From NCBI RefSeq assembly GCF_026248685.1, contig NZ_CP111041.1, forward strand, positions 434,001 through 498,000: DNA of 64,000 nucleotides. Direction: 5' to 3'. The translations under genes and the position numbers were made by a program. Shown in pieces: positions 6,396 to 49,563 of the stretch. This stretch comes from Haladaptatus caseinilyticus (lineage in GTDB: Archaea; Halobacteriota; Halobacteria; Halobacteriales; Haladaptataceae). The notes below the pieces were generated by a model. That model was given only the letters and a program-made list of their open reading frames with translations, made no database searches and had not been told where the DNA came from. Positions within the stretch are counted from its first letter, which is position 1. Each line of letters begins with the position of its first letter.

Positions 6396-9300
6396 ATGGC
6401 GACGCAGGACTCCAAACCACTCGACGAATCAGGATCGATAGATCCGGCCAGCGACGACCGGGCGACGTACGATTACACCGGTGGGTCTCACCATCGACAG
6501 GAACTCGTCGATGACCTCGAATCGCTCATCGACGGCGACGTCAGGTTCGACGAGTACTCCCGGCAGCTCTATGCGACCGACGCTTCCGCCTACGAGGTCA
6601 CACCCGTCGGCGTCGTCTTTCCACGCTCGACGGACGACGTCGCCGCCATCGTCGACTACTGTTTCGACCACGAGATTCCCGTTCTTCCGCGGGGGGGCGG
6701 CACCAGTTTGGCTGGCCAGGCAACGAACGAAGCCGTCGTGCTCGATTTGAGCGTCTACATGAACGATCTCGTCGAGGTCGACCCTGGTGCTCGCGTAGCC
6801 GATGTACAGGCCGGTGCTGTACTTGCGGACCTCAACGCAGCACTCGCACCTCACGACCTCAAATTCGCCCCGGACCCGGCTGCCGGCGATCGGAGTACGC
6901 TGGGTGGAGCGATTGGCAATAACTCCACGGGTGCCCACTCGCTACAATACGGTAAGACGGACGCCTACGTCGAAGAGGTCGAGGTCGTTCTCGCCGACGG
7001 GACGGTTACCACGTTCGGGGAAGTGACACTCGACGAACTCCGAAATCGTGCCGCTTCCGATGGCAATATCGAGAGCCGCATTTACGATGTGCTCCGCCGT
7101 GTCGTAGACGAGGAGAGCGAAACGATTCACGACGTATATCCACAGCTGAAACGCAACGTCTCGGGGTACAACCTCGACAGGCTCGTCCAGGAAGCAGCGT
7201 CGGAGACGATCAACCTCGCTCGTGTTTTCGCTGGGAGTGAGGGAACGCTCGGCGTGGTTACGGCGGCGACCATCTCGCTCGAATCGGTTCCCGAAACGAA
7301 ATCGGTCGCGTTGCTTACGTATCACGACCTGATAGACGCGATGGCCGACGTCGATACGATCGTCCAAAATCATGATCCTGCTGCCGTTGAAGCCATCGAC
7401 GATGTTCTTCTCGATCTCGCTCGTGAGACGGAGGAGTTCGAAACAGTCGCAGCGATGCTGCCGGCGGAAACCGAAACGGCACTGCTGGTCGAGTTCTACG
7501 CGGAGGACGAGGCACACGGACGACAGCAAGTCGCGGAGCTGGTCGCCGACAGAATCCCGGATGTCGCTCTAGACGAGGCGGAGCATGAAGAAGAAGATCG
7601 CCAATACGACGAGCCAGTCCGCGCCTTTGACGTGCTAGAAGCGTACGATGAGGAGGAACGAGCGACGCTCTGGAAACTTCGGAAGAGCGGAATGCCCATT
7701 CTCCTCTCCCGGACGACCGACGCAAAGCACATCTCGTTCATCGAAGACACCGCCGTCCCGACGGAAAACCTCGCTGAATACGTTGCTGATTTCCAAGCGG
7801 TACTCGACGACCACGACACGTTCGCCTCGTTCTACGCCCACGCCGGTCCCGGATGTATGCACATGCGGCCACTCGTCGATACGAAAAGTCCAGCAGGTGT
7901 TGCCCAAATGGAGTCGATCTCCGACGCCGTGACTGACCTCGTCGTCGAGTACAACGGTTCCGTTTCAGGTGAACACGGCGATGGTCGTGCTCGAACACAG
8001 TGGAATCGGAAGCTGTACGGCGATGATGTCTGGTCGCTATTCCGCGATGTGAAGTCGGCGTTCGACCCCGACTGGATCCTCAATCCTGGACAGGTCTGTG
8101 GTGAAATAGACATGACCGAGCAGCTTCGGTTCGGTGGTAACTACGATTTCGAAGCCGAGTTCGATCCGACGCTGAATTGGGAGAACGACAATGGCTTCCA
8201 GGGAATGGTCGAACTCTGTCACGGCTGTGGTGGCTGTCGCGGCCAGCAGGAAACCACTGGTGGGGTGATGTGCCCGACCTATCGCGCTGCCGAAGAGGAA
8301 AGCGTCACAACCCGTGGTCGAGCGAACATGTTGCGACAAGCGATGAGCGGTGACCTCGATGATGACGTACTCGATATCGAGTTCATGAACGAGGTAATGG
8401 ACCTCTGTATCGGCTGCAAGGGCTGTTCCCGCGACTGTCCGAGCGAAGTCGACATGGCAAAGCTGAAAGCCGAGGTCGAACATGCCAATCATGAGCAACA
8501 CGGTGCGGGCGTTCGGGAACGGCTCTTTGCGAATATCGACACGCTCAACTCCATCGGGTCGAGGCTTGCCCCGGTTTCAAACTGGGCCGAAACGATCCCT
8601 GGGGTTCGAACCGTCCTCGAAGAGACGGTCGGCATCGCCAAAGAACGCTCACTTCCAACGTTCCATCGCGAGAGTTTCGAGGAGTGGTTCGAAGCACGGG
8701 GCGGTCCACGAGTTTCACCATCACATGCAGCGCGAAAGGTACTGTTGTTCCCCGATACGTACACGAACTACAACCACCCCGAAGCGGGGAAAGCAGCGGT
8801 TCGAGTACTCGAAGCTGCCGATGTTCACGTTCGAATCCCCGAAAACGTAACCTCGACCGGTCGTCCGGCACACTCGAAGGGCTTCCTCGACGTATCACGT
8901 GAACGCGCGGCAACGAACATCGACGCCCTCGCACCACGAGTCATCGAGGGCTGGGACGTCGTTCTCGTCGAACCATCCGACGCCGTGATGTTTCAGTCGG
9001 ATTATCTCGACCTCTTGTCGGGTCGTGACGTCGAACGGGTTGCGGCTAACACGTATGGTATACTCGAATACCTCGACCGATTCGACTTCGACCTCGAATT
9101 CGAGACCCTCACCGAATCGCTCACGTATCATGGTCATTGCCATCAAAAATCGACGAAGAAGGACCATCATGCGGCTTCGGTACTTGGGAAAGCCGGATAC
9201 GAAGTCGATGTGCTCGATTCAGGCTGCTGTGGAATGGCTGGTTCGTTCGGTTACGAGTCCGAACACTACTCAATGAGTATGGCGATCGCGAACATCCTCT

Positions 9301-9437
9301 TCGAACAGGTCGACGACAGCGACGGCGAACAAGTCGTCGCTCCTGGTGCGTCTTGCCGAACGCAGCTAGAGGACAGAAACGATGGCGAGGAACCGGTACA
9401 TCCGATCGAAAAGGTCGAAGACGCACTTCGAACCTGA
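6396..9437 (+). CDS. FAD-linked oxidase fused to Fe-S/CCG domain (D-lactate/glycolate dehydrogenase type)
   Basis: The 1013-residue fusion joins a GlcD-like half to a GlcF-like half. Residues about 75-260 form the FAD-binding PCMH domain with PRGGGTSLAGQ; residues 260-560 are the FAD-oxidase C domain, ending near SGEHGDGRART. Cysteine clusters follow at about 609 (CHGCGGC) and 671 (CIGCKGCSRDC), fitting two 4Fe-4S centres. The C-terminal part has CCG-type motifs, CHQKS and SGCCGMAG near 942. Such proteins oxidise D-lactate, glycolate or D-2-hydroxyglutarate and pass electrons to quinone at the membrane. It is the second gene of the operon starting at 5418 and runs convergently to the glutamate dehydrogenase gene. 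Confidence 0.92.
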   Translation: MATQDSKPLDESGSIDPASDDRATYDYTGGSHHRQELVDDLESLIDGDVRFDEYSRQLYATDASAYEVTPVGVVFPRSTDDVAAIVDYCFDHEIPVLPRGGGTSLAGQATNEAVVLDLSVYMNDLVEVDPGARVADVQAGAVLADLNAALAPHDLKFAPDPAAGDRSTLGGAIGNNSTGAHSLQYGKTDAYVEEVEVVLADGTVTTFGEVTLDELRNRAASDGNIESRIYDVLRRVVDEESETIHDVYPQLKRNVSGYNLDRLVQEAASETINLARVFAGSEGTLGVVTAATISLESVPETKSVALLTYHDLIDAMADVDTIVQNHDPAAVEAIDDVLLDLARETEEFETVAAMLPAETETALLVEFYAEDEAHGRQQVAELVADRIPDVALDEAEHEEEDRQYDEPVRAFDVLEAYDEEERATLWKLRKSGMPILLSRTTDAKHISFIEDTAVPTENLAEYVADFQAVLDDHDTFASFYAHAGPGCMHMRPLVDTKSPAGVAQMESISDAVTDLVVEYNGSVSGEHGDGRARTQWNRKLYGDDVWSLFRDVKSAFDPDWILNPGQVCGEIDMTEQLRFGGNYDFEAEFDPTLNWENDNGFQGMVELCHGCGGCRGQQETTGGVMCPTYRAAEEESVTTRGRANMLRQAMSGDLDDDVLDIEFMNEVMDLCIGCKGCSRDCPSEVDMAKLKAEVEHANHEQHGAGVRERLFANIDTLNSIGSRLAPVSNWAETIPGVRTVLEETVGIAKERSLPTFHRESFEEWFEARGGPRVSPSHAARKVLLFPDTYTNYNHPEAGKAAVRVLEAADVHVRIPENVTSTGRPAHSKGFLDVSRERAATNIDALAPRVIEGWDVVLVEPSDAVMFQSDYLDLLSGRDVERVAANTYGILEYLDRFDFDLEFETLTESLTYHGHCHQKSTKKDHHAASVLGKAGYEVDVLDSGCCGMAGSFGYESEHYSMSMAIANILFEQVDDSDGEQVVAPGASCRTQLEDRNDGEEPVHPIEKVEDALRT

Positions 9438-32991: not shown

Positions 32992-34416
32992 ATGAGACAG
33001 TTATACATCGATGGAGATTGGACCGACTCCGAGTCCGACGAGGGCATCGACGTCGACTCACCAGTCACAGGAGAGGTCATCGATACCGTTCCTGCTGCAT
33101 CCGCACGGGACGTACGAACGGCAGTCGAGGCCGCCCGCCGGGCACAACGCGAACTCGAGGAGATGACCGCGTTCGAACGTGCGGCAGTGCTCGACGAGGT
33201 GACCGATTACTTCGAGGAACACGAAGACGAGATCGCCGAACTCATCACGCGCGAGGAGGGGAAACCACTCCACGAATCATACGAGGAGACCGAATACGTC
33301 ATCGAATCGAGCGACGACTACGGTCACGATGCGATCCGGTTGTTCGGCGACGTCGTTCCATCGGAGTTCAGAGGGCGGTTTGCATATACCCAGCGCGAGC
33401 CATACGGTCCGTGTGCGGTCATCAGCCCCTGGAACTTTCCCCTCGAAGTCCCCGGTGGAAGCATATATTCGGCCATCGCCACCGCGAATCCGGTCGTGTT
33501 CAAACCTGCCGAGGAGACGCCACTCACGGCGTACCATATCGCGGAAGCGTTCGACCAGTCGAGCCTTCCCGACGGTGCATTCAATCTCATCACGGGAGCA
33601 GGCGAAACCGGTGCGGAGTTGGTCGGCCATCAAGACATTCGACTGATCGCGTTTACCGGTAGTACCGAAGTCGGACGACAGATCGCCAAAACGGCCGCTG
33701 AGCGAAATGCACAGTGTCTGTTGGAGATGGGTGGAAAGGACCCGATCATCGTTCTCGACGACGCTGACGTGGATCATGCCGCCGAAAGCATCGTGATGGG
33801 GAGTAACTGGAATGCGGGGCAGGTTTGTTGCGGGACCGAGCGTGTCATCACGACCGATGGCGTCCACGATGCATTGGTCGAAGCCGTAGTAGAGAAGACC
33901 GAGGCCCTTACCCTGGGCGACCCCTTCGAGGAAGGAACTGATGTGGGACCGATGGTGAGCAAACGGATCCAGCAGAAGGTCATAGATCACGTCGATGATG
34001 CGGTAAATCAAGGAGCCCAGCTCCTGGCCGGTGGGGATACCGACGGTCTGTTTTACACCCCTGCGGTGTTGGATAGCGTAAACGAACAGATGGATATCGC
34101 TACAGAGGAGACGTTCGGACCGGTTTCACCGGTAATCCGCGTCGATGACTACGAAGAAGCGATCGAAGTCGCTAACCGTTCACCGTACGGTCTTCAAGCC
34201 GCGATCTTCACTGATTCCCTCGAACGTGCTCACGATGCTGCGAATCGGTTGAAAGCAGGCGGCGTGTTCATCAATGAAACCAACAACTACTGGGAACGGC
34301 TGCTTCCGTTCGGCGGATACGGAAGTAGCGGTTCTGGTGGTCGGTATGGAAGTAAATGGCACTTGGAAGCGATGACGCAAACGAAAGCAGTCATGATAAA
34401 TTATAAGGATTACTGA
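32992..34416 (+). CDS. NAD(P)-dependent aldehyde dehydrogenase (semialdehyde type)
   Basis: The 474-residue enzyme has PYGPCAVISPWNFP, FTGSTEVGRQI, the general base in LEMGGKDP and the catalytic cysteine in NAGQVCCGTER (C279). The C-terminus (PFGGYGSSGSGGRYGSK) differs from the gene upstream, which places it nearer succinate-semialdehyde or lactaldehyde dehydrogenases. A gap of 170 bases with an AT-rich box separates it from the first dehydrogenase. It is followed one base later by the lysine-6-dehydrogenase-like gene, so it could oxidise aminoadipate semialdehyde made by that enzyme. It might also serve the GABA branch. Confidence 0.9.
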   Translation: MRQLYIDGDWTDSESDEGIDVDSPVTGEVIDTVPAASARDVRTAVEAARRAQRELEEMTAFERAAVLDEVTDYFEEHEDEIAELITREEGKPLHESYEETEYVIESSDDYGHDAIRLFGDVVPSEFRGRFAYTQREPYGPCAVISPWNFPLEVPGGSIYSAIATANPVVFKPAEETPLTAYHIAEAFDQSSLPDGAFNLITGAGETGAELVGHQDIRLIAFTGSTEVGRQIAKTAAERNAQCLLEMGGKDPIIVLDDADVDHAAESIVMGSNWNAGQVCCGTERVITTDGVHDALVEAVVEKTEALTLGDPFEEGTDVGPMVSKRIQQKVIDHVDDAVNQGAQLLAGGDTDGLFYTPAVLDSVNEQMDIATEETFGPVSPVIRVDDYEEAIEVANRSPYGLQAAIFTDSLERAHDAANRLKAGGVFINETNNYWERLLPFGGYGSSGSGGRYGSKWHLEAMTQTKAVMINYKDY

Positions 34417-42323: not shown

Positions 42324-42624
42324 CGGTTTACTACACGGGAGATTTGCGATCGGGCTAGTTTTGAGACAGGCGGGACATCAGCATAGCATGGGCGAGAACG
42401 ACTGCAACCACCGCAAAAGCGGAGGTGGTGTGCGAGAAGTCGGCGTCAGTGGTTCTCGTCTGCGAATGATTCTTCCGTCTTAAATCAGCTTTGTCGGTGC
42501 AAAATCCCCCTATTGATGGCGTCATTTGGATAGGTACCTTAGTCAAAACGACGATCGATTTCGAACGTGGTATTACCCGATGGTAGTATCAAGTTATATT
42601 GGGATGGAACCCACACGTTCAGCT
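42324..42624. other. Intergenic region, no gene called
   Basis: Frames on both strands are short and show no family features. A TATA-like ATTATATTG near 42590-42600 is the probable promoter of the tenA gene. Confidence 0.4.
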
Positions 42625-43290
42625 ATGAGCTTCAGTAGCGATCTCGAACCAGTGGCTGAACCTATCTGGGATGCCATCGTAGCGCATCCGATAGTCGAGG
42701 AGTTAGGGTCCGGTACCCTTGACGAAGAGCTATTCAGGTATTGGGTCAGACAAGACTATATCTATTTGATTGACTATGCACGAGTCTTCGCGCACGGTGC
42801 GACGATGGCGCCCGACCTCGAGCGCATGGGGACCTTTGCTGAGCTTCTCGATTCAACGATCAACACGGAGATGGCCTTGCACCGCGAGTACGCGGCCGAG
42901 TTCGGCATCACTGAAAGCGATTTGGAGGCTACTGAACCATCACCCACTACGAGGGCGTACACCGACTTCCTTGTGCGCATCGCGACGACGGGGACGTTCG
43001 GCGATCTCGTGGCTGCACTTCTCCCCTGTATGTGGGGCTTCAACGAGACAGGAAAGCGGCTCGCGGAGGGAGGATTGCCGGACGATGACCGGTACGCTGG
43101 ATGGATTGAGATGTACGCAGGCGAAGAGTTCACGGAACTCACGACATGGTGTAAGGAGTTGATGGACGAGGTAGCTGAGGGCAAAAACGAGGACGAGCGC
43201 GACCGCTTTCGGTACCTGTTTCGAACATCGGGACGCTACGAGTACCGTTTCTGGGACGCTGCATGGCGACAGGAGGAATGGTCGGTATGA
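42625..43290 (+). CDS. tenA: TenA/thiaminase II family, cysteine class
   Basis: About 221 residues from ATG 42625; an upstream extension lacks homology. The all-helical TenA fold is recognisable by FRYWVRQDYIYLIDYARVFA and the active-site strand ALLPCMWGFNETG, with the catalytic cysteine at C135, the same number as in Bacillus TenA. Near the end are YAGWIEMYAGEEF and a C-terminal Glu-rich helix. It hydrolyses aminopyrimidines to hydroxymethylpyrimidine for thiamine salvage. The start of the second TenA gene overlaps its stop (ATGA). Confidence 0.93.
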   Translation: MSFSSDLEPVAEPIWDAIVAHPIVEELGSGTLDEELFRYWVRQDYIYLIDYARVFAHGATMAPDLERMGTFAELLDSTINTEMALHREYAAEFGITESDLEATEPSPTTRAYTDFLVRIATTGTFGDLVAALLPCMWGFNETGKRLAEGGLPDDDRYAGWIEMYAGEEFTELTTWCKELMDEVAEGKNEDERDRFRYLFRTSGRYEYRFWDAAWRQEEWSV

Positions 43291-44018
43291 CTCGGTATGA
43301 TACCGACGTCGTGGGCGATTCCGAGACCTTCGAAGAGTATGCCGAGGGAGGTGAGAAACACCGATTCACAGACTGGCTTCGTGAACGTTCGGAACCGGAA
43401 TGGTCGAATGCAACGGCCCATCGTTTTACGCACGAACTTGGAACCGGAGATCTCGACGATGAAGTCTTTCGACGGTATCTCGTGCAGGATTACGCGTTCG
43501 TCGAGACACTCGTCGGGGTCTTTGGATACGCTGTCGGGAACGCACCGACCATGGAATCGAAATCACGACTCGTCGACTTTCTCGGGACACTCACCGCCGA
43601 GGAGAACGATTACTTCGAACGCTCTTTCGAGGCATTGGACGTCACGAAAGCTGAATACACCGACCCTGATTTGACACCGACAACACAGGCCTTCGAAGAC
43701 CTTCTACTGCGGGCCGCGAGAGAAAACGGCTACGCCGAGACACTCGCGGTTCTTCTCCCCGCCGAGTGGACCTATTTGGAATGGGCTACTACGGTCGAGT
43801 ATGATTCACAGTCACGGTTCTATCTCGCCGAGTGGATCGACCTCCACGTGAACGAGGAGTTCAGGGCCTTCGTCATGTGGCTCCGAAATGAACTCGATCG
43901 GGAAGGGAAAGCAGCATCACTCCGCCGTCAGCGACGCATAGAGCGGCTATTCAGGCGAACGATGGCACTCGAAGTTTCCTTCTTCGAAACGGCATACGAA
44001 CCACGTGAACACGACTGA
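43287..44018 (+). CDS. TenA family protein lacking the cysteine (TenA_E class)
   Basis: The 243-residue protein is homologous to the gene before it: FRRYLVQDYAFVETLVGVFG, then VLLPAEWTYLEWATT where the cysteine position is alanine (A159) followed by glutamate (E160), and FYLAEWIDLHVNEEF. Proteins of this kind, without the cysteine, are known as TenA_E and are linked to salvage of formylated or other degraded thiamine pyrimidines. Coupled translation with TenA_C suggests that the two act in sequence or as partners. Confidence 0.85.
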   Translation: MTRYDTDVVGDSETFEEYAEGGEKHRFTDWLRERSEPEWSNATAHRFTHELGTGDLDDEVFRRYLVQDYAFVETLVGVFGYAVGNAPTMESKSRLVDFLGTLTAEENDYFERSFEALDVTKAEYTDPDLTPTTQAFEDLLLRAARENGYAETLAVLLPAEWTYLEWATTVEYDSQSRFYLAEWIDLHVNEEFRAFVMWLRNELDREGKAASLRRQRRIERLFRRTMALEVSFFETAYEPREHD

Positions 44019-45355: not shown

Positions 45356-46183
45356 TTAGTTTTCGTACGTTCGATTTATTCCATGCCTGCGAAGCAGATG
45401 GTGTACGATGTTGAGTGTCCAATTGCGTCGTGTTTCGAGATCGGTCCCATAGCGCGTTGTTTCGACGATAAATCCGGGTTGGTTGAGGTCAGCATCGACC
45501 TTATGGATGAGTAACGGTCGGTCACCATCGATGGTGTTGCCGCGTCTGAAGCGATAGTAGTCTTCGAGTGAACCGTCGAAATGATAGCGGTTCATGTACC
45601 GGGTCGTCATCACTGCGTCTTCTCCAGCACCCGACGCCGTCGTCGGATAGATCGCCTGCCCAACTCCCTCAGGACCGACGTCCTCGTTGTAAATTCCCTT
45701 CGAGCTGTGGAGATCGAGCACGACATCTGGGTCGTATGATGTGATAACGTCCCAGATTGCACGCGCAAGTGGTGTCGTCGGCTCTTCACCGGGAGGGAAT
45801 TTGCGGTTGAGATTTCCGTTATCGTTCGAGTATGTATCTCGTCGAATCGCGACGGGGTTTGCTCGTGGAATCGTGATAAGAGTTCCCTGGTCAATCGACC
45901 ATGTTTTTACGTCCTCTGCGGCTTGGTAGCCCGCTTCTTCGATCCCATGAAACCCCCCAACAACGACCGCTGTGGGTCCTTCGTTCTGCATATCCGTGAG
46001 ATACACATCAGTTTCATCAGGTGTACCCTCACGGATAGTGTGAGTGTCCCGTATCGCCGCCTGGCTAGTGCCTTGTGTAGCCAGTGCGGCCGGTGTTGCA
46101 ACAGCTGCTAAGCCAGCGTGACGTAGAAATGAACGACGTTTTTGAGTTGTCTTTTCGCTACCGCCTTCGTGTTTTTCTGCCAT
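45356..46183 (-). CDS. Tat-exported succinylglutamate-desuccinylase/aspartoacylase-type hydrolase
   Basis: About 275 residues from ATG 46183. A twin-arginine signal KRRSFLRHAGLAAVATPAAL spans 16-35. The zinc-site set of the M14-like AstE/aspartoacylase group is visible: H79 and E82 in GFHGIEEAG, NLNR (124-127) and H159 in LDLHSSKG. Bacterial DoeB belongs to this family, but an exported version would act on external substrates. Its target acyl-amino acid is unknown. Confidence 0.8.
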   Translation of the reverse strand: MAEKHEGGSEKTTQKRRSFLRHAGLAAVATPAALATQGTSQAAIRDTHTIREGTPDETDVYLTDMQNEGPTAVVVGGFHGIEEAGYQAAEDVKTWSIDQGTLITIPRANPVAIRRDTYSNDNGNLNRKFPPGEEPTTPLARAIWDVITSYDPDVVLDLHSSKGIYNEDVGPEGVGQAIYPTTASGAGEDAVMTTRYMNRYHFDGSLEDYYRFRRGNTIDGDRPLLIHKVDADLNQPGFIVETTRYGTDLETRRNWTLNIVHHLLRRHGINRTYEN

Positions 46184-46748
46184 TGCAACCTTTGTCAAAC
46201 ATAGAATAAGTTAGTTATACGGTCGCTGCAATTACTAAAGGAAACATTACTGAACGATGGGACCGATACCGAACCAAGGCAACGGTAGCATCGCTTTCCG
46301 CCCGTCTGATTCGGGAACTCATTGGCGAACGCTAACGTGGTTCCCGTTATGAACGGGTGTTACAGCCCATTGTAGGAGAGGTCATACCAAACGGTCGAAC
46401 AGAATTGCTCCAACCCACGTGAGTCGGAGGCGTACCACGGAGGGTGAGAGGTGATTTCATCGACCCAGACCCGGAGAAATACGACGATGGAGCGAAAACG
46501 TCTGTAACCGAATCAGACGGACCACGACAGGTACGTGAGTATTCGTACCAGTGCTGTACGTGGCAGATATATCGTAAATCGTTCTTTCTCGGGGGTGCGA
46601 AGATATAAAAGTGGAATTCTCCGACGTACGGTCTGTAGAGACCCCACTCCTTCTTGACACCGCCGTGTCCCCAAAACACGCCGTAAAACAGGAGACATCC
46701 CTCTCAAGGAGCAACCGGCGTTAGCCGTGATAGGCGGGGCGAGACGGT
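46184..46748. other. Intergenic region, no gene seen
   Basis: The minus-strand frames at 46347-46714 are Cys/Arg-rich shadows without family features. I see no repeat or RNA structure that I can support. Confidence 0.4.
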
Positions 46749-47442: not shown

Positions 47443-48759
47443 TTACTCGGTCCAGTTGTGAAGTGCGTCCACGAATATGTCATGGACATCTTCTTCGGTT
47501 ACCGGCCGCGGATTACACCGTAGAAGCCGTTCTTGGGTTTGGACGGTCTGTTCGGCCAACCAGTCCACGTCGTCTTCCGTTATTCCTGCTAGTTCGGTGA
47601 GACCACTCGGAAGGACGTTAAGATCTCGCTGGAGCTGGATATACTGTGCCTTCAGTGCTTCAGCCGCTTCGTGATCGGTTTTCCCGGTCGTCTCTACGCC
47701 GAACAATTCCGCGAGGCGTGCGAACCGCTCGGGATCACTCGCCGAGTTGTAATCGATGCTGCTCGCTGGTGTGAGAACGGCGATAGTCTCCCCGTGGAAA
47801 CTGTGATAGCGGTTTCCAACCGGGTAGGCCATCGCGTGGCAGAGCGACGCACCAGCCGTGAGCCCAGCAATGGCACCAAATAACGCCCCTTGGAGCATGT
47901 TCGAACGAGCTTCGAGGTCGTCGCCGTTGTGAACAGCCGTGCGAACGTTGCTCGACAGCAGGTCGATGGCCTTCTCCGAAAACATCTCGGTAAGCGGTGT
48001 CCGGCCAGCATAGACCGGGCGCATTTCGGGGTCGGCTGGCCGCAAGAGGGAATCATACTCGTGAGTGGTAAACCCCTCGATCGCGTGCCCGAGTGCATCC
48101 ATCGCAGTGTTCGCCGTCAACTCCGGTGGAAGCGTCGTCGTCAACGTCGGGTCGAGGATGGCCGCGTCAGCCCGGATATGATTGCTCGAAATGCCTTCCT
48201 TGATGTTCTTTTCTTCGACGGAAAGGATAGCCACCGGCGATATTTCGGCCCCTGTTCCTGCGGTCGTCGGCATGAGGACAAGCGGCGGGCCTGACTCGGT
48301 GATGGATTTTCCTTGCCCAGTCGGTTCAGCGACATAGTCGAGCGGACTCCCCCCGTTGGCAACGATGGTTCGTGTGGCCTTCGCGGTGTCCATACAACTG
48401 CCACCGCCGAGTCCGACGTAATAGTCGTACCCGGAGTCTCCCGTTCGGGACCGAACGAACGAAACACAATCCTCGATCGCCTCGATCGAGGGTTCACGCT
48501 CCGACTCATCGTAGATATCGACGTTTAGACCCGCGTCGATCAAGTGAGACGAAACACGCTCGACGTGTCCGGCATCGACGAGTCCTTCGTCCGTAATGAT
48601 GAGACCGCTGGCGTTTTCATCGACACCCAGATCGCGGAGTTGAAACGCGAGTTCTTCGGTCGCATCCAGTCCGAACCGTATCTGTGGCATCTGAATGTGC
48701 CACACGGTCTCCGGGGAGAGTTCGTGGGACGGTGCGGATACTGAACGTTCGTATCCCAT
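47443..48759 (-). CDS. Iron-containing alcohol dehydrogenase, hydroxyacid-oxoacid transhydrogenase/GHB type
   Basis: The 438-residue protein is a group III alcohol dehydrogenase. It has GGGSCMDTAK for NAD, PTTAGTGAE, DALGHAIEGFTT and a C-terminal metal histidine region SLCHAMAYPVGN with YHSFHGE. The middle segment RPVYAGRTPLTEMFSEKAI is peculiar to the transhydrogenase/4-hydroxybutyrate dehydrogenase branch (ADHFE1, BlcB). These oxidise 4-hydroxybutyrate to succinate semialdehyde. The gene is directly after the lactonase gene, so the two would form a lactone-opening and oxidising pair. Confidence 0.88.
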   Translation of the reverse strand: MGYERSVSAPSHELSPETVWHIQMPQIRFGLDATEELAFQLRDLGVDENASGLIITDEGLVDAGHVERVSSHLIDAGLNVDIYDESEREPSIEAIEDCVSFVRSRTGDSGYDYYVGLGGGSCMDTAKATRTIVANGGSPLDYVAEPTGQGKSITESGPPLVLMPTTAGTGAEISPVAILSVEEKNIKEGISSNHIRADAAILDPTLTTTLPPELTANTAMDALGHAIEGFTTHEYDSLLRPADPEMRPVYAGRTPLTEMFSEKAIDLLSSNVRTAVHNGDDLEARSNMLQGALFGAIAGLTAGASLCHAMAYPVGNRYHSFHGETIAVLTPASSIDYNSASDPERFARLAELFGVETTGKTDHEAAEALKAQYIQLQRDLNVLPSGLTELAGITEDDVDWLAEQTVQTQERLLRCNPRPVTEEDVHDIFVDALHNWTE

Positions 48760-49563
48760 CTACCCCCACCCCGATTGAATCGCTTCGTACTGGTCAGGAT
48801 CGTGGCCGTAGACGATTTCCGCGTCGTGTTCACGCTCGATTTCTTTCAGCGTCTGAAGGCTTCGGAACCAGTGGCGGTGGCTCCACAACAACCCTGCCCC
48901 CAACGGTGTTTCGTCTTCATAGTTCTCCGTTTGGTAAATCTCGTCGCCCGCGAACGCGACGGTGCCCTCGTCGTCGAGGTGAACGACTGTTCCGGTCAAC
49001 CCCGGCGTATGCCCCGGCAGACGGACGAAGTCCACGTCCTCGAAATGTGTCTCTCGATCCCCATGAAGGAGTTGCCAGTTCAGGTCGTGATCGAAATCCT
49101 CGAGGATGTACGCCGCACTTCCCTCGTCGGTTTTTGCCGAGTAGTAGGCGAACTTCATCTCTTCTTCGTGGACGAACACGGGTGTATCGGTCCCGTCGAA
49201 GTGGTGGAGGCCACCCGCATGGTCGAGATGAAGGTGACTCTGGAACACGTAGTCGATATCATCAAGACTCCATCCTGCATCTTCGAGGTCACCCGCGAGA
49301 GTATGCTCGGAAGCATCGTGTGGATAGAACGCCTCCTTCAATCCTTCGGGCCAATGGCCGTCGAGTGCGTCCTCATGGTTTCCGGTGTCCCAGAGAATAG
49401 TCCCCTCTGGATGGTCGATAACGAGGTTGAACACTGGAATTGCGGCATACTCAGTGTCTGGATTCGGATTCGAATGCGATCCGAGTGTGTTTCCCTCGAT
49501 CAAGTAGTTCAGGTCACATTGCAGTTCGCCACGATCGATTACGTCGATGGTCGCATTGACCAT
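48760..49563 (-). CDS. Metallo-beta-lactamase-fold lactonase (AHL/gamma-butyrolactone lactonase family)
   Basis: The 267-residue protein has the zinc motif SHLHLDHAGG (110-115 HxHxDH), a downstream LPGHTPG histidine, GDEIYQTENYED with the bridging aspartate, and the C-terminal GHDPDQYEA found in AttM/BlcC and AiiA-type lactonases. These open homoserine lactones or gamma-butyrolactone. Its stop abuts the start of the iron alcohol dehydrogenase, so they are co-transcribed. The combination points to gamma-butyrolactone to 4-hydroxybutyrate to succinate semialdehyde. Quorum-signal cleavage is the alternative. Confidence 0.87.
   Translation of the reverse strand: MVNATIDVIDRGELQCDLNYLIEGNTLGSHSNPNPDTEYAAIPVFNLVIDHPEGTILWDTGNHEDALDGHWPEGLKEAFYPHDASEHTLAGDLEDAGWSLDDIDYVFQSHLHLDHAGGLHHFDGTDTPVFVHEEEMKFAYYSAKTDEGSAAYILEDFDHDLNWQLLHGDRETHFEDVDFVRLPGHTPGLTGTVVHLDDEGTVAFAGDEIYQTENYEDETPLGAGLLWSHRHWFRSLQTLKEIEREHDAEIVYGHDPDQYEAIQSGWG

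What the first reader, a model, noticed from the sequence alone, without database searches (positions are those of the whole stretch)
47443..49563. Lactonase and iron dehydrogenase operon like bacterial BlcC/BlcB
An AttM/BlcC-type lactonase directly followed by a 4-hydroxybutyrate-type iron dehydrogenase repeats the core of the Agrobacterium gamma-butyrolactone pathway. With the semialdehyde dehydrogenase at 32992 the chain to succinate would be complete. In an archaeon this could mean use of lactones or 4-hydroxybutyrate polymers, or quenching of signals.
Basis: partly seen in the sequence, partly recalled or inferred. Interest (0 to 1): 0.6.

Follow-up and report, generated by a model that had tools for sequence, protein, structure and literature searches.

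The report
Archaeal lactone-opening and hydroxyacid-oxidising gene pair
A salt-loving archaeon carries, side by side, a gene for an enzyme that opens small ring-shaped esters (lactones) and a gene for an iron enzyme likely to oxidise the resulting hydroxy acid; the same pairing recurs across haloarchaea and, with related iron enzymes, across many bacteria, which suggests a testable job for a poorly understood enzyme family.

Summary
Both ORFs are intact, on the minus strand, and touch with no intergenic base (lactonase 48760-49563, then dehydrogenase 47443-48759). The pair is widespread: among 392 haloarchaeal genomes, 58 of 60 close lactonase homologues sit immediately upstream of a close dehydrogenase homologue, with varied flanking genes.

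Neither gene is a BlcC or BlcB orthologue: the lactonase is about 29% identical to BlcC and fails the AttM cut-off; the dehydrogenase is 32% identical to BlcB. The dehydrogenase carries the first of two insertions that define hydroxyacid-oxoacid transhydrogenase (HOT) but lacks the second, so RefSeq's name 'HOT' is not fully met. The semialdehyde dehydrogenase at 32992 is probably the wrong partner: in three relatives an SSADH directly follows the pair, and its best matches here lie elsewhere (71%, 68%), whereas 32992 is 37% identical.

Genuine bacterial HOT genes also sit beside lactonases (39 of 80 loci), often with a D-2-hydroxyglutarate-dehydrogenase-like gene (25 of 80), and HOT lies by tetrahydrofuran-type monooxygenase genes. 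I favour a gamma-lactone/4-hydroxybutyrate catabolic module, a variant of the Blc type. Hydride acceptor (NAD or 2-oxoglutarate) and exact lactone remain untested.

The parts
48760..49563 (-). Metallo-beta-lactamase-fold lactonase, 267 aa, first gene of the pair; dinuclear metal site H110, H112, D114, H115, H185, D207, H254 complete
   Evidence: ORF; PF00753; best NCBIfam AhlS 154/475 and AttM 121/390, both under cut-off; closest solved structures 6cgy and GcL lactonase; ligands invariant in alignment with BlcC
47443..48759 (-). Iron-containing (group III) alcohol dehydrogenase, 438 aa, HOT-like; ligands D221, H225, H308, H322; NAD-type Asp57; conserved Arg411
   Evidence: ORF; PF00465/PF25137; ligands and Arg411 conserved in 61 haloarchaeal and 83 bacterial HOT sequences; AlphaFold model mean pLDDT 93 with Fe-ADH fold
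48004..48057 (-). Segment coding for the HOT-type first insertion (about residues 235-252, RPxYxG motif) in the dehydrogenase; the second HOT insertion, expected between H308 and H322, is absent
   Evidence: HOT definition from PMC5125639
48757..48762 (-). Gene junction TAG|ATG with no intergenic bases

Best explanation
The two genes are one transcription unit for using a small gamma-lactone. The metallo-lactonase hydrolyses gamma-butyrolactone (or a very close lactone) to 4-hydroxybutyrate. The HOT-like iron dehydrogenase oxidises 4-hydroxybutyrate to succinic semialdehyde. A succinate-semialdehyde dehydrogenase encoded elsewhere in this genome (best candidate G000:C6:141425-142783), but directly behind the pair in three relatives, makes succinate for the citric acid cycle. 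Shown here: intact genes, catalytic residues, conserved pairing, SSADH as third gene in relatives, the same theme in bacteria. Inferred: co-transcription, substrate, direction, hydride acceptor. Lack of the second HOT insertion and of any linked D-2-hydroxyglutarate dehydrogenase makes me favour NAD+ over 2-oxoglutarate as acceptor, without proof.
For: Pair conserved: 58/60 lactonases have the dehydrogenase adjacent and 58/71 dehydrogenases have the lactonase adjacent, in different flanking neighbourhoods. SSADH starts 24-29 nt behind the dehydrogenase in G095 (Halobacterium hubeiense), G183 and G375; its best-scoring NCBIfam model is succinic semialdehyde dehydrogenase NF006915, 604 bits, under the 730 cut-off. 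Genuine bacterial HOT genes have a lactonase within 5 kb, nearly always adjacent, in 39/80 loci (BlcC-type downstream or window-like type upstream) and a YdiJ/D2HGDH-like gene in 25/80. Deinococcus wulumuqiensis HOT-attM. Rhodococcus ruber YYL plasmid: THF-type monooxygenase genes, HOT and a D2HGDH-like gene, where THF goes through gamma-butyrolactone and 4-hydroxybutyrate to succinate (PMC7464125). Arg411 is invariant in HOT-like and HOT and present in BlcB but absent in FucO, a candidate carboxylate binder. Mammalian HOT oxidises 4-hydroxybutyrate (PMC5125639).
Against: No biochemistry was found for any haloarchaeal member. No SSADH or regulator is linked in the window. In two same-genus relatives an acyl-CoA-ligase-like gene, not SSADH, follows the pair, which would suit longer hydroxy acids. 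The dehydrogenase is only 32% identical to BlcB and about 34% to bacterial HOT, so substrate transfer by homology is weak.
Confidence: 0.55

Rival explanations
1. As the best explanation for the substrate, but the dehydrogenase is a true transhydrogenase: tightly bound NAD shuttles hydride from 4-hydroxybutyrate to 2-oxoglutarate, giving D-2-hydroxyglutarate, which a separate FAD/Fe-S dehydrogenase re-oxidises.
For: First HOT insertion with invariant R247 and Y250 shared with bacterial HOT; RefSeq names the relatives HOT; bacterial HOT genes are linked to a YdiJ/D2HGDH-like gene; a YdiJ-like protein is encoded in the same window at 6396-9437 (562 bits against a cut-off of 1350).
Against: Second HOT insertion absent in 61/61 haloarchaeal paired sequences and present in 83/83 bacterial HOT; no D2HGDH-like gene near any of 60 haloarchaeal pairs; separate clades in the tree.
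Confidence: 0.2
2. The module handles another small or medium lactone, for example delta-valerolactone/5-hydroxyvalerate or alkyl gamma-lactones, with the hydroxy acid sent to a semialdehyde or a CoA ester.
For: Acyl-CoA-ligase-like gene 139-165 nt behind the pair in two same-genus species; unpaired relatives of the lactonase lie by AMP-binding and acyl-CoA dehydrogenase genes; a 5-hydroxyvalerate dehydrogenase (CpnD) is known in the Fe-ADH family (PMC5125639).
Against: The gene that follows in three species is of SSADH type; bacterial HOT lies by THF-type genes whose pathway intermediate is 4-hydroxybutyrate.
Confidence: 0.15
3. The lactonase is a quorum-quenching enzyme that opens N-acyl homoserine lactones; the dehydrogenase only coincidentally shares the operon or processes by-products.
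For: Nearest named families and structures are AHL lactonases (AhlS, AttM, AiiA, GcL); RefSeq calls it 'N-acyl homoserine lactonase family protein'.
Against: Below every curated AHL-lactonase cut-off; near-obligate coupling to a hydroxyacid-type dehydrogenase argues for catabolism; in Agrobacterium whether AHL cleavage by BlcC is physiological or accidental is itself disputed (PMC5924552).
Confidence: 0.1

Closest known systems
BlcABC (AttKLM) gamma-butyrolactone operon of Agrobacterium
   Same: Metallo-lactonase plus Fe-ADH next to each other, with SSADH in the same unit in some haloarchaeal relatives; same inferred chemistry
   Different: Gene order (SSADH-ADH-lactonase in Agrobacterium, lactonase-ADH-(SSADH) here), about 29% and 32% identity, first HOT insertion in the ADH, no linked IclR repressor, SSADH unlinked in this genome
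Hydroxyacid-oxoacid transhydrogenase (HOT, ADHFE1, cd08190)
   Same: Group III Fe-ADH with D-H-H-H site, NAD-type Asp, first HOT insertion and invariant Arg411
   Different: Lacks the second, 13-residue insertion; no linked D2HGDH; separate clade
Bacterial HOT-lactonase clusters (Pseudonocardia, Labrys, Rubrobacter, Deinococcus and others; found here)
   Same: HOT gene adjacent to a lactonase on the same strand; in actinobacteria the same order, lactonase then HOT
   Different: HOT with both insertions; lactonase either of BlcC type (downstream) or of another clade (upstream); often with a D2HGDH-like gene
AhlS/GcL-type AHL lactonases
   Same: Fold, metal ligands, N-terminal region
   Different: 154 bits against a cut-off of 475; coupled to a dehydrogenase

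Membership tests
Blc operon (BlcABC/BlcR) | Lactonase belongs to the AttM/BlcC family | tested here: not met
   NF045700 121 bits against cut-off 390, BlcC itself 487; outside the BlcC clade in the tree
Blc operon (BlcABC/BlcR) | Fe-ADH orthologous to BlcB | tested here: not met
   32% identity; 18-residue insertion that BlcB lacks
Blc operon (BlcABC/BlcR) | SSADH (BlcA) in the same operon | tested here: not met
   None adjacent in the window; present 24-29 nt downstream in three relatives
Blc operon (BlcABC/BlcR) | Linked IclR-type repressor BlcR | tested here: not met
   None next to the window pair; only one weak IclR match among 60 fetched regions
Blc operon (BlcABC/BlcR) | Converts gamma-butyrolactone to succinate | not testable with these tools
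   Needs enzyme assays or growth tests
HOT subfamily (cd08190) | First insertion (19 residues between helices 5 and 6) | tested here: met
   18-residue extra spacing with RPxYxG in 61/61 haloarchaeal paired sequences; definition from PMC5125639
HOT subfamily (cd08190) | Second insertion (13 residues between helices 8 and 9) | tested here: not met
   His-His spacing 14 in 61/61, against 25-27 in 83/83 bacterial HOT
HOT subfamily (cd08190) | D-H-H-H metal site and NAD-type Asp (human position 81) | tested here: met
   D221, H225, H308, H322 and D57 conserved
HOT subfamily (cd08190) | Hydride transfer between hydroxy and oxo acids without added NAD | not testable with these tools
   No assay possible
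4-hydroxybutyrate dehydrogenase NF058672 | Score above curated cut-off | tested here: not met
   191 against 500; weak test, since BlcB scores only 230
AhlS AHL lactonase NF047976 | Score above curated cut-off | tested here: not met
   154 against 475
Metallo-beta-lactamase-fold lactonase (superfamily) | HxHxDH plus His, Asp, His dinuclear site | tested here: met
   H110, H112, D114, H115, H185, D207, H254 invariant

The most novel reading that the evidence does not exclude
Lactone breakdown is a main microbial role of HOT-type enzymes: bacterial HOT (with D-2-hydroxyglutarate recycling) and haloarchaeal one-insert HOT-like enzymes were both recruited next to lactonases, on the bacterial side at least twice, and the haloarchaeal form is a distinct enzyme class that may use free NAD instead of 2-oxoglutarate.
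Probability: 0.4. Interest if true: 0.6.

Novelty: new variant of a known kind. Interest (0 to 1): 0.48.

Why it matters
A 2016 survey of iron-containing alcohol dehydrogenases states that the activity of HOT-type proteins outside animals is unknown (PMC5125639). The recurrent linkage to lactonases, D2HGDH-like genes and, in haloarchaea, SSADH gives a specific substrate hypothesis (4-hydroxybutyrate made from gamma-lactones) that simple assays can test, and suggests a widespread lactone-use trait in haloarchaea that annotation currently labels as signal quenching. The held open-access literature showed no paper describing this linkage, but most subscription papers are not held.

Tried and rejected
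SSADH at 32992 as pathway partner: rejected as best candidate (37% identity to the operon-linked SSADH; better matches elsewhere; best NCBIfam match lactaldehyde dehydrogenase, 434 against 650). PHA/4HB-polymer role: PHA synthase exists but on contig C5, unlinked. A perfect 15-bp palindrome (ATGATTAGTAATCAT) about 20 nt before the lactonase start looked like an operator, but it was not found upstream of the other lactonases, so no claim. D2HGDH near haloarchaeal pairs: none in 60. Flanking ribosomal L1/L10/L12 and TctA genes in one group of genomes are taken as chromosomal context, not function. The HOT tree is a quick tree (careful search unfinished), so deep branching is not used beyond group separation.

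Full report
OBSERVATION. The window lies in a 4.8-Mb haloarchaeal genome (G000:C6:434001-498000). A same-genus genome, G186, has a contig of the same length as the Haladaptatus halobius plasmid NZ_CP085339.1, with the homologues at the same coordinates, so the genus is very probably Haladaptatus. On the minus strand a 267-aa ORF (48760-49563) is followed directly, TAG|ATG, by a 438-aa ORF (47443-48759). Pfam identifies a metallo-beta-lactamase-fold protein and an iron-containing alcohol dehydrogenase. Both are single-copy in the genome.

CONSERVATION. In 392 genomes of the order, close lactonases (at least 67% identity) occur in 60 and the dehydrogenase is adjacent in 58. Close dehydrogenases (at least 64%) occur in 71, of which 58 have the lactonase adjacent (counted from the place lists, own genome included; a fragmented pair in G152 is left out). 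In 60 fetched regions the distance is -1 to about 20 nt in 52 and the outer neighbours vary. In one group of genomes the pair sits beside the ribosomal L1-L10-L12 genes. The pair is therefore a functional unit, not a chance neighbourhood.

THE LACTONASE. All seven metal ligands of AiiA-type lactonases are present and invariant in an alignment that includes BlcC. It scores below the cut-offs of all AHL-lactonase models (AhlS 154/475, AttM 121/390), while BlcC scores 487 on AttM. The tree separates a BlcC clade, an actinobacterial clade and a haloarchaeal clade. It is a lactonase by fold and active site, with specificity open.

THE DEHYDROGENASE. Metal ligands D221, H225, H308, H322 and the NAD-type D57 are conserved. 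RefSeq names its relatives HOT. According to PMC5125639 all HOT proteins have two insertions. All 61 haloarchaeal paired-group sequences have the first and lack the second; all 83 bacterial HOT sequences have both; BlcB and FucO have neither. The unpaired haloarchaeal paralogues (about 42% identical) show the same one-insert form. Arg411 and the insert residues R247 and Y250 are invariant across HOT and HOT-like sequences; Arg411 is also in BlcB but not in FucO. Its aligned neighbour in FucO is a cysteine that, from memory, lines the substrate pocket, so Arg411 is a candidate carboxylate binder (inference). The AlphaFold model is confident (mean pLDDT 93) and its best structural matches are Bacillus methanol dehydrogenase, 1,3-propanediol dehydrogenase and FucO; no solved HOT structure was found.

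THIRD STEP. In Halobacterium hubeiense pSTJ001 the order is lactonase, HOT-like, NAD-dependent succinate-semialdehyde dehydrogenase. The same arrangement occurs in G183 and G375, with the SSADH 24-29 nt behind. In the window's genome the best matches of that SSADH are G000:C6:141425-142783 (71%) and G000:C1:1970562-1971917 (68%).

BACTERIAL PARALLEL. Deinococcus wulumuqiensis carries HOT next to attM. A scan of 84,980 species genomes with bacterial HOTs gave 80 loci: 39 have a lactonase in the fetched flanks, nearly always adjacent, either BlcC-type downstream or window-like upstream, and 25 have a D2HGDH-like FAD/Fe-S gene. That protein's best NCBIfam match is the D-2-hydroxyglutarate dehydrogenase YdiJ, under its cut-off. 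In Rhodococcus ruber YYL, HOT and the D2HGDH-like gene lie near a multicomponent monooxygenase, taken to be its THF monooxygenase; THF breakdown passes through gamma-butyrolactone and 4-hydroxybutyrate to succinate (PMC7464125). This ties HOT to 4-hydroxybutyrate from lactones and fits its known co-product, D-2-hydroxyglutarate. The 80 loci are the best-scoring ones from a capped scan, dominated by actinobacteria, so the fractions are not population estimates.

CONCLUSION. Best supported is a gamma-lactone/4-hydroxybutyrate catabolic module that works like Blc but is not a member of that lineage. Whether the hydride goes to NAD+ or to 2-oxoglutarate is undecided: the missing second insertion and the absence of linked D2HGDH genes in 60 regions lean to NAD+.

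Noticed in passing
L155-L234 (bacterial HOT loci), e.g. L185, L192, L198: Genuine bacterial HOT genes are recurrently flanked by a lactonase and a YdiJ-like D-2-hydroxyglutarate dehydrogenase, in Pseudonocardia as a three-gene set.
   Followed up: partly
L260 (Rhodococcus ruber YYL plasmid pYYL1.1): HOT and a D2HGDH-like gene sit near multicomponent monooxygenase genes of THF type on a conjugative plasmid.
   Followed up: partly
L008-L011, L245-L252: A second haloarchaeal lactonase group (about 51-63% identical) is not paired with HOT-like genes but often lies by AMP-binding or acyl-CoA dehydrogenase genes, suggesting a different, longer-chain substrate.
   Followed up: partly
window 42526-44018: Two tandem, overlapping TenA/THI-4-family genes; only the first exceeds the thiaminase II cut-off.
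   Followed up: no
window 45356-46198: AstE/AspA-like zinc deacylase with an N-terminal RRSFLRHAG stretch resembling a Tat signal, so possibly exported; a 74% homologue lies near the pair in same-genus L072.
   Followed up: no
window 6396-9437: YdiJ-like FAD/Fe-S protein of 1013 aa, a candidate D-2-hydroxyglutarate dehydrogenase, one of six PF02913 proteins in the genome.
   Followed up: partly
G152:C34:19027-20864; G017:C8:171850-173157; G078:C3:773593-774897: HOT-like gene split in two frames (G152) or with an internal stop (G017, G078), suggesting decay in some species.
   Followed up: no
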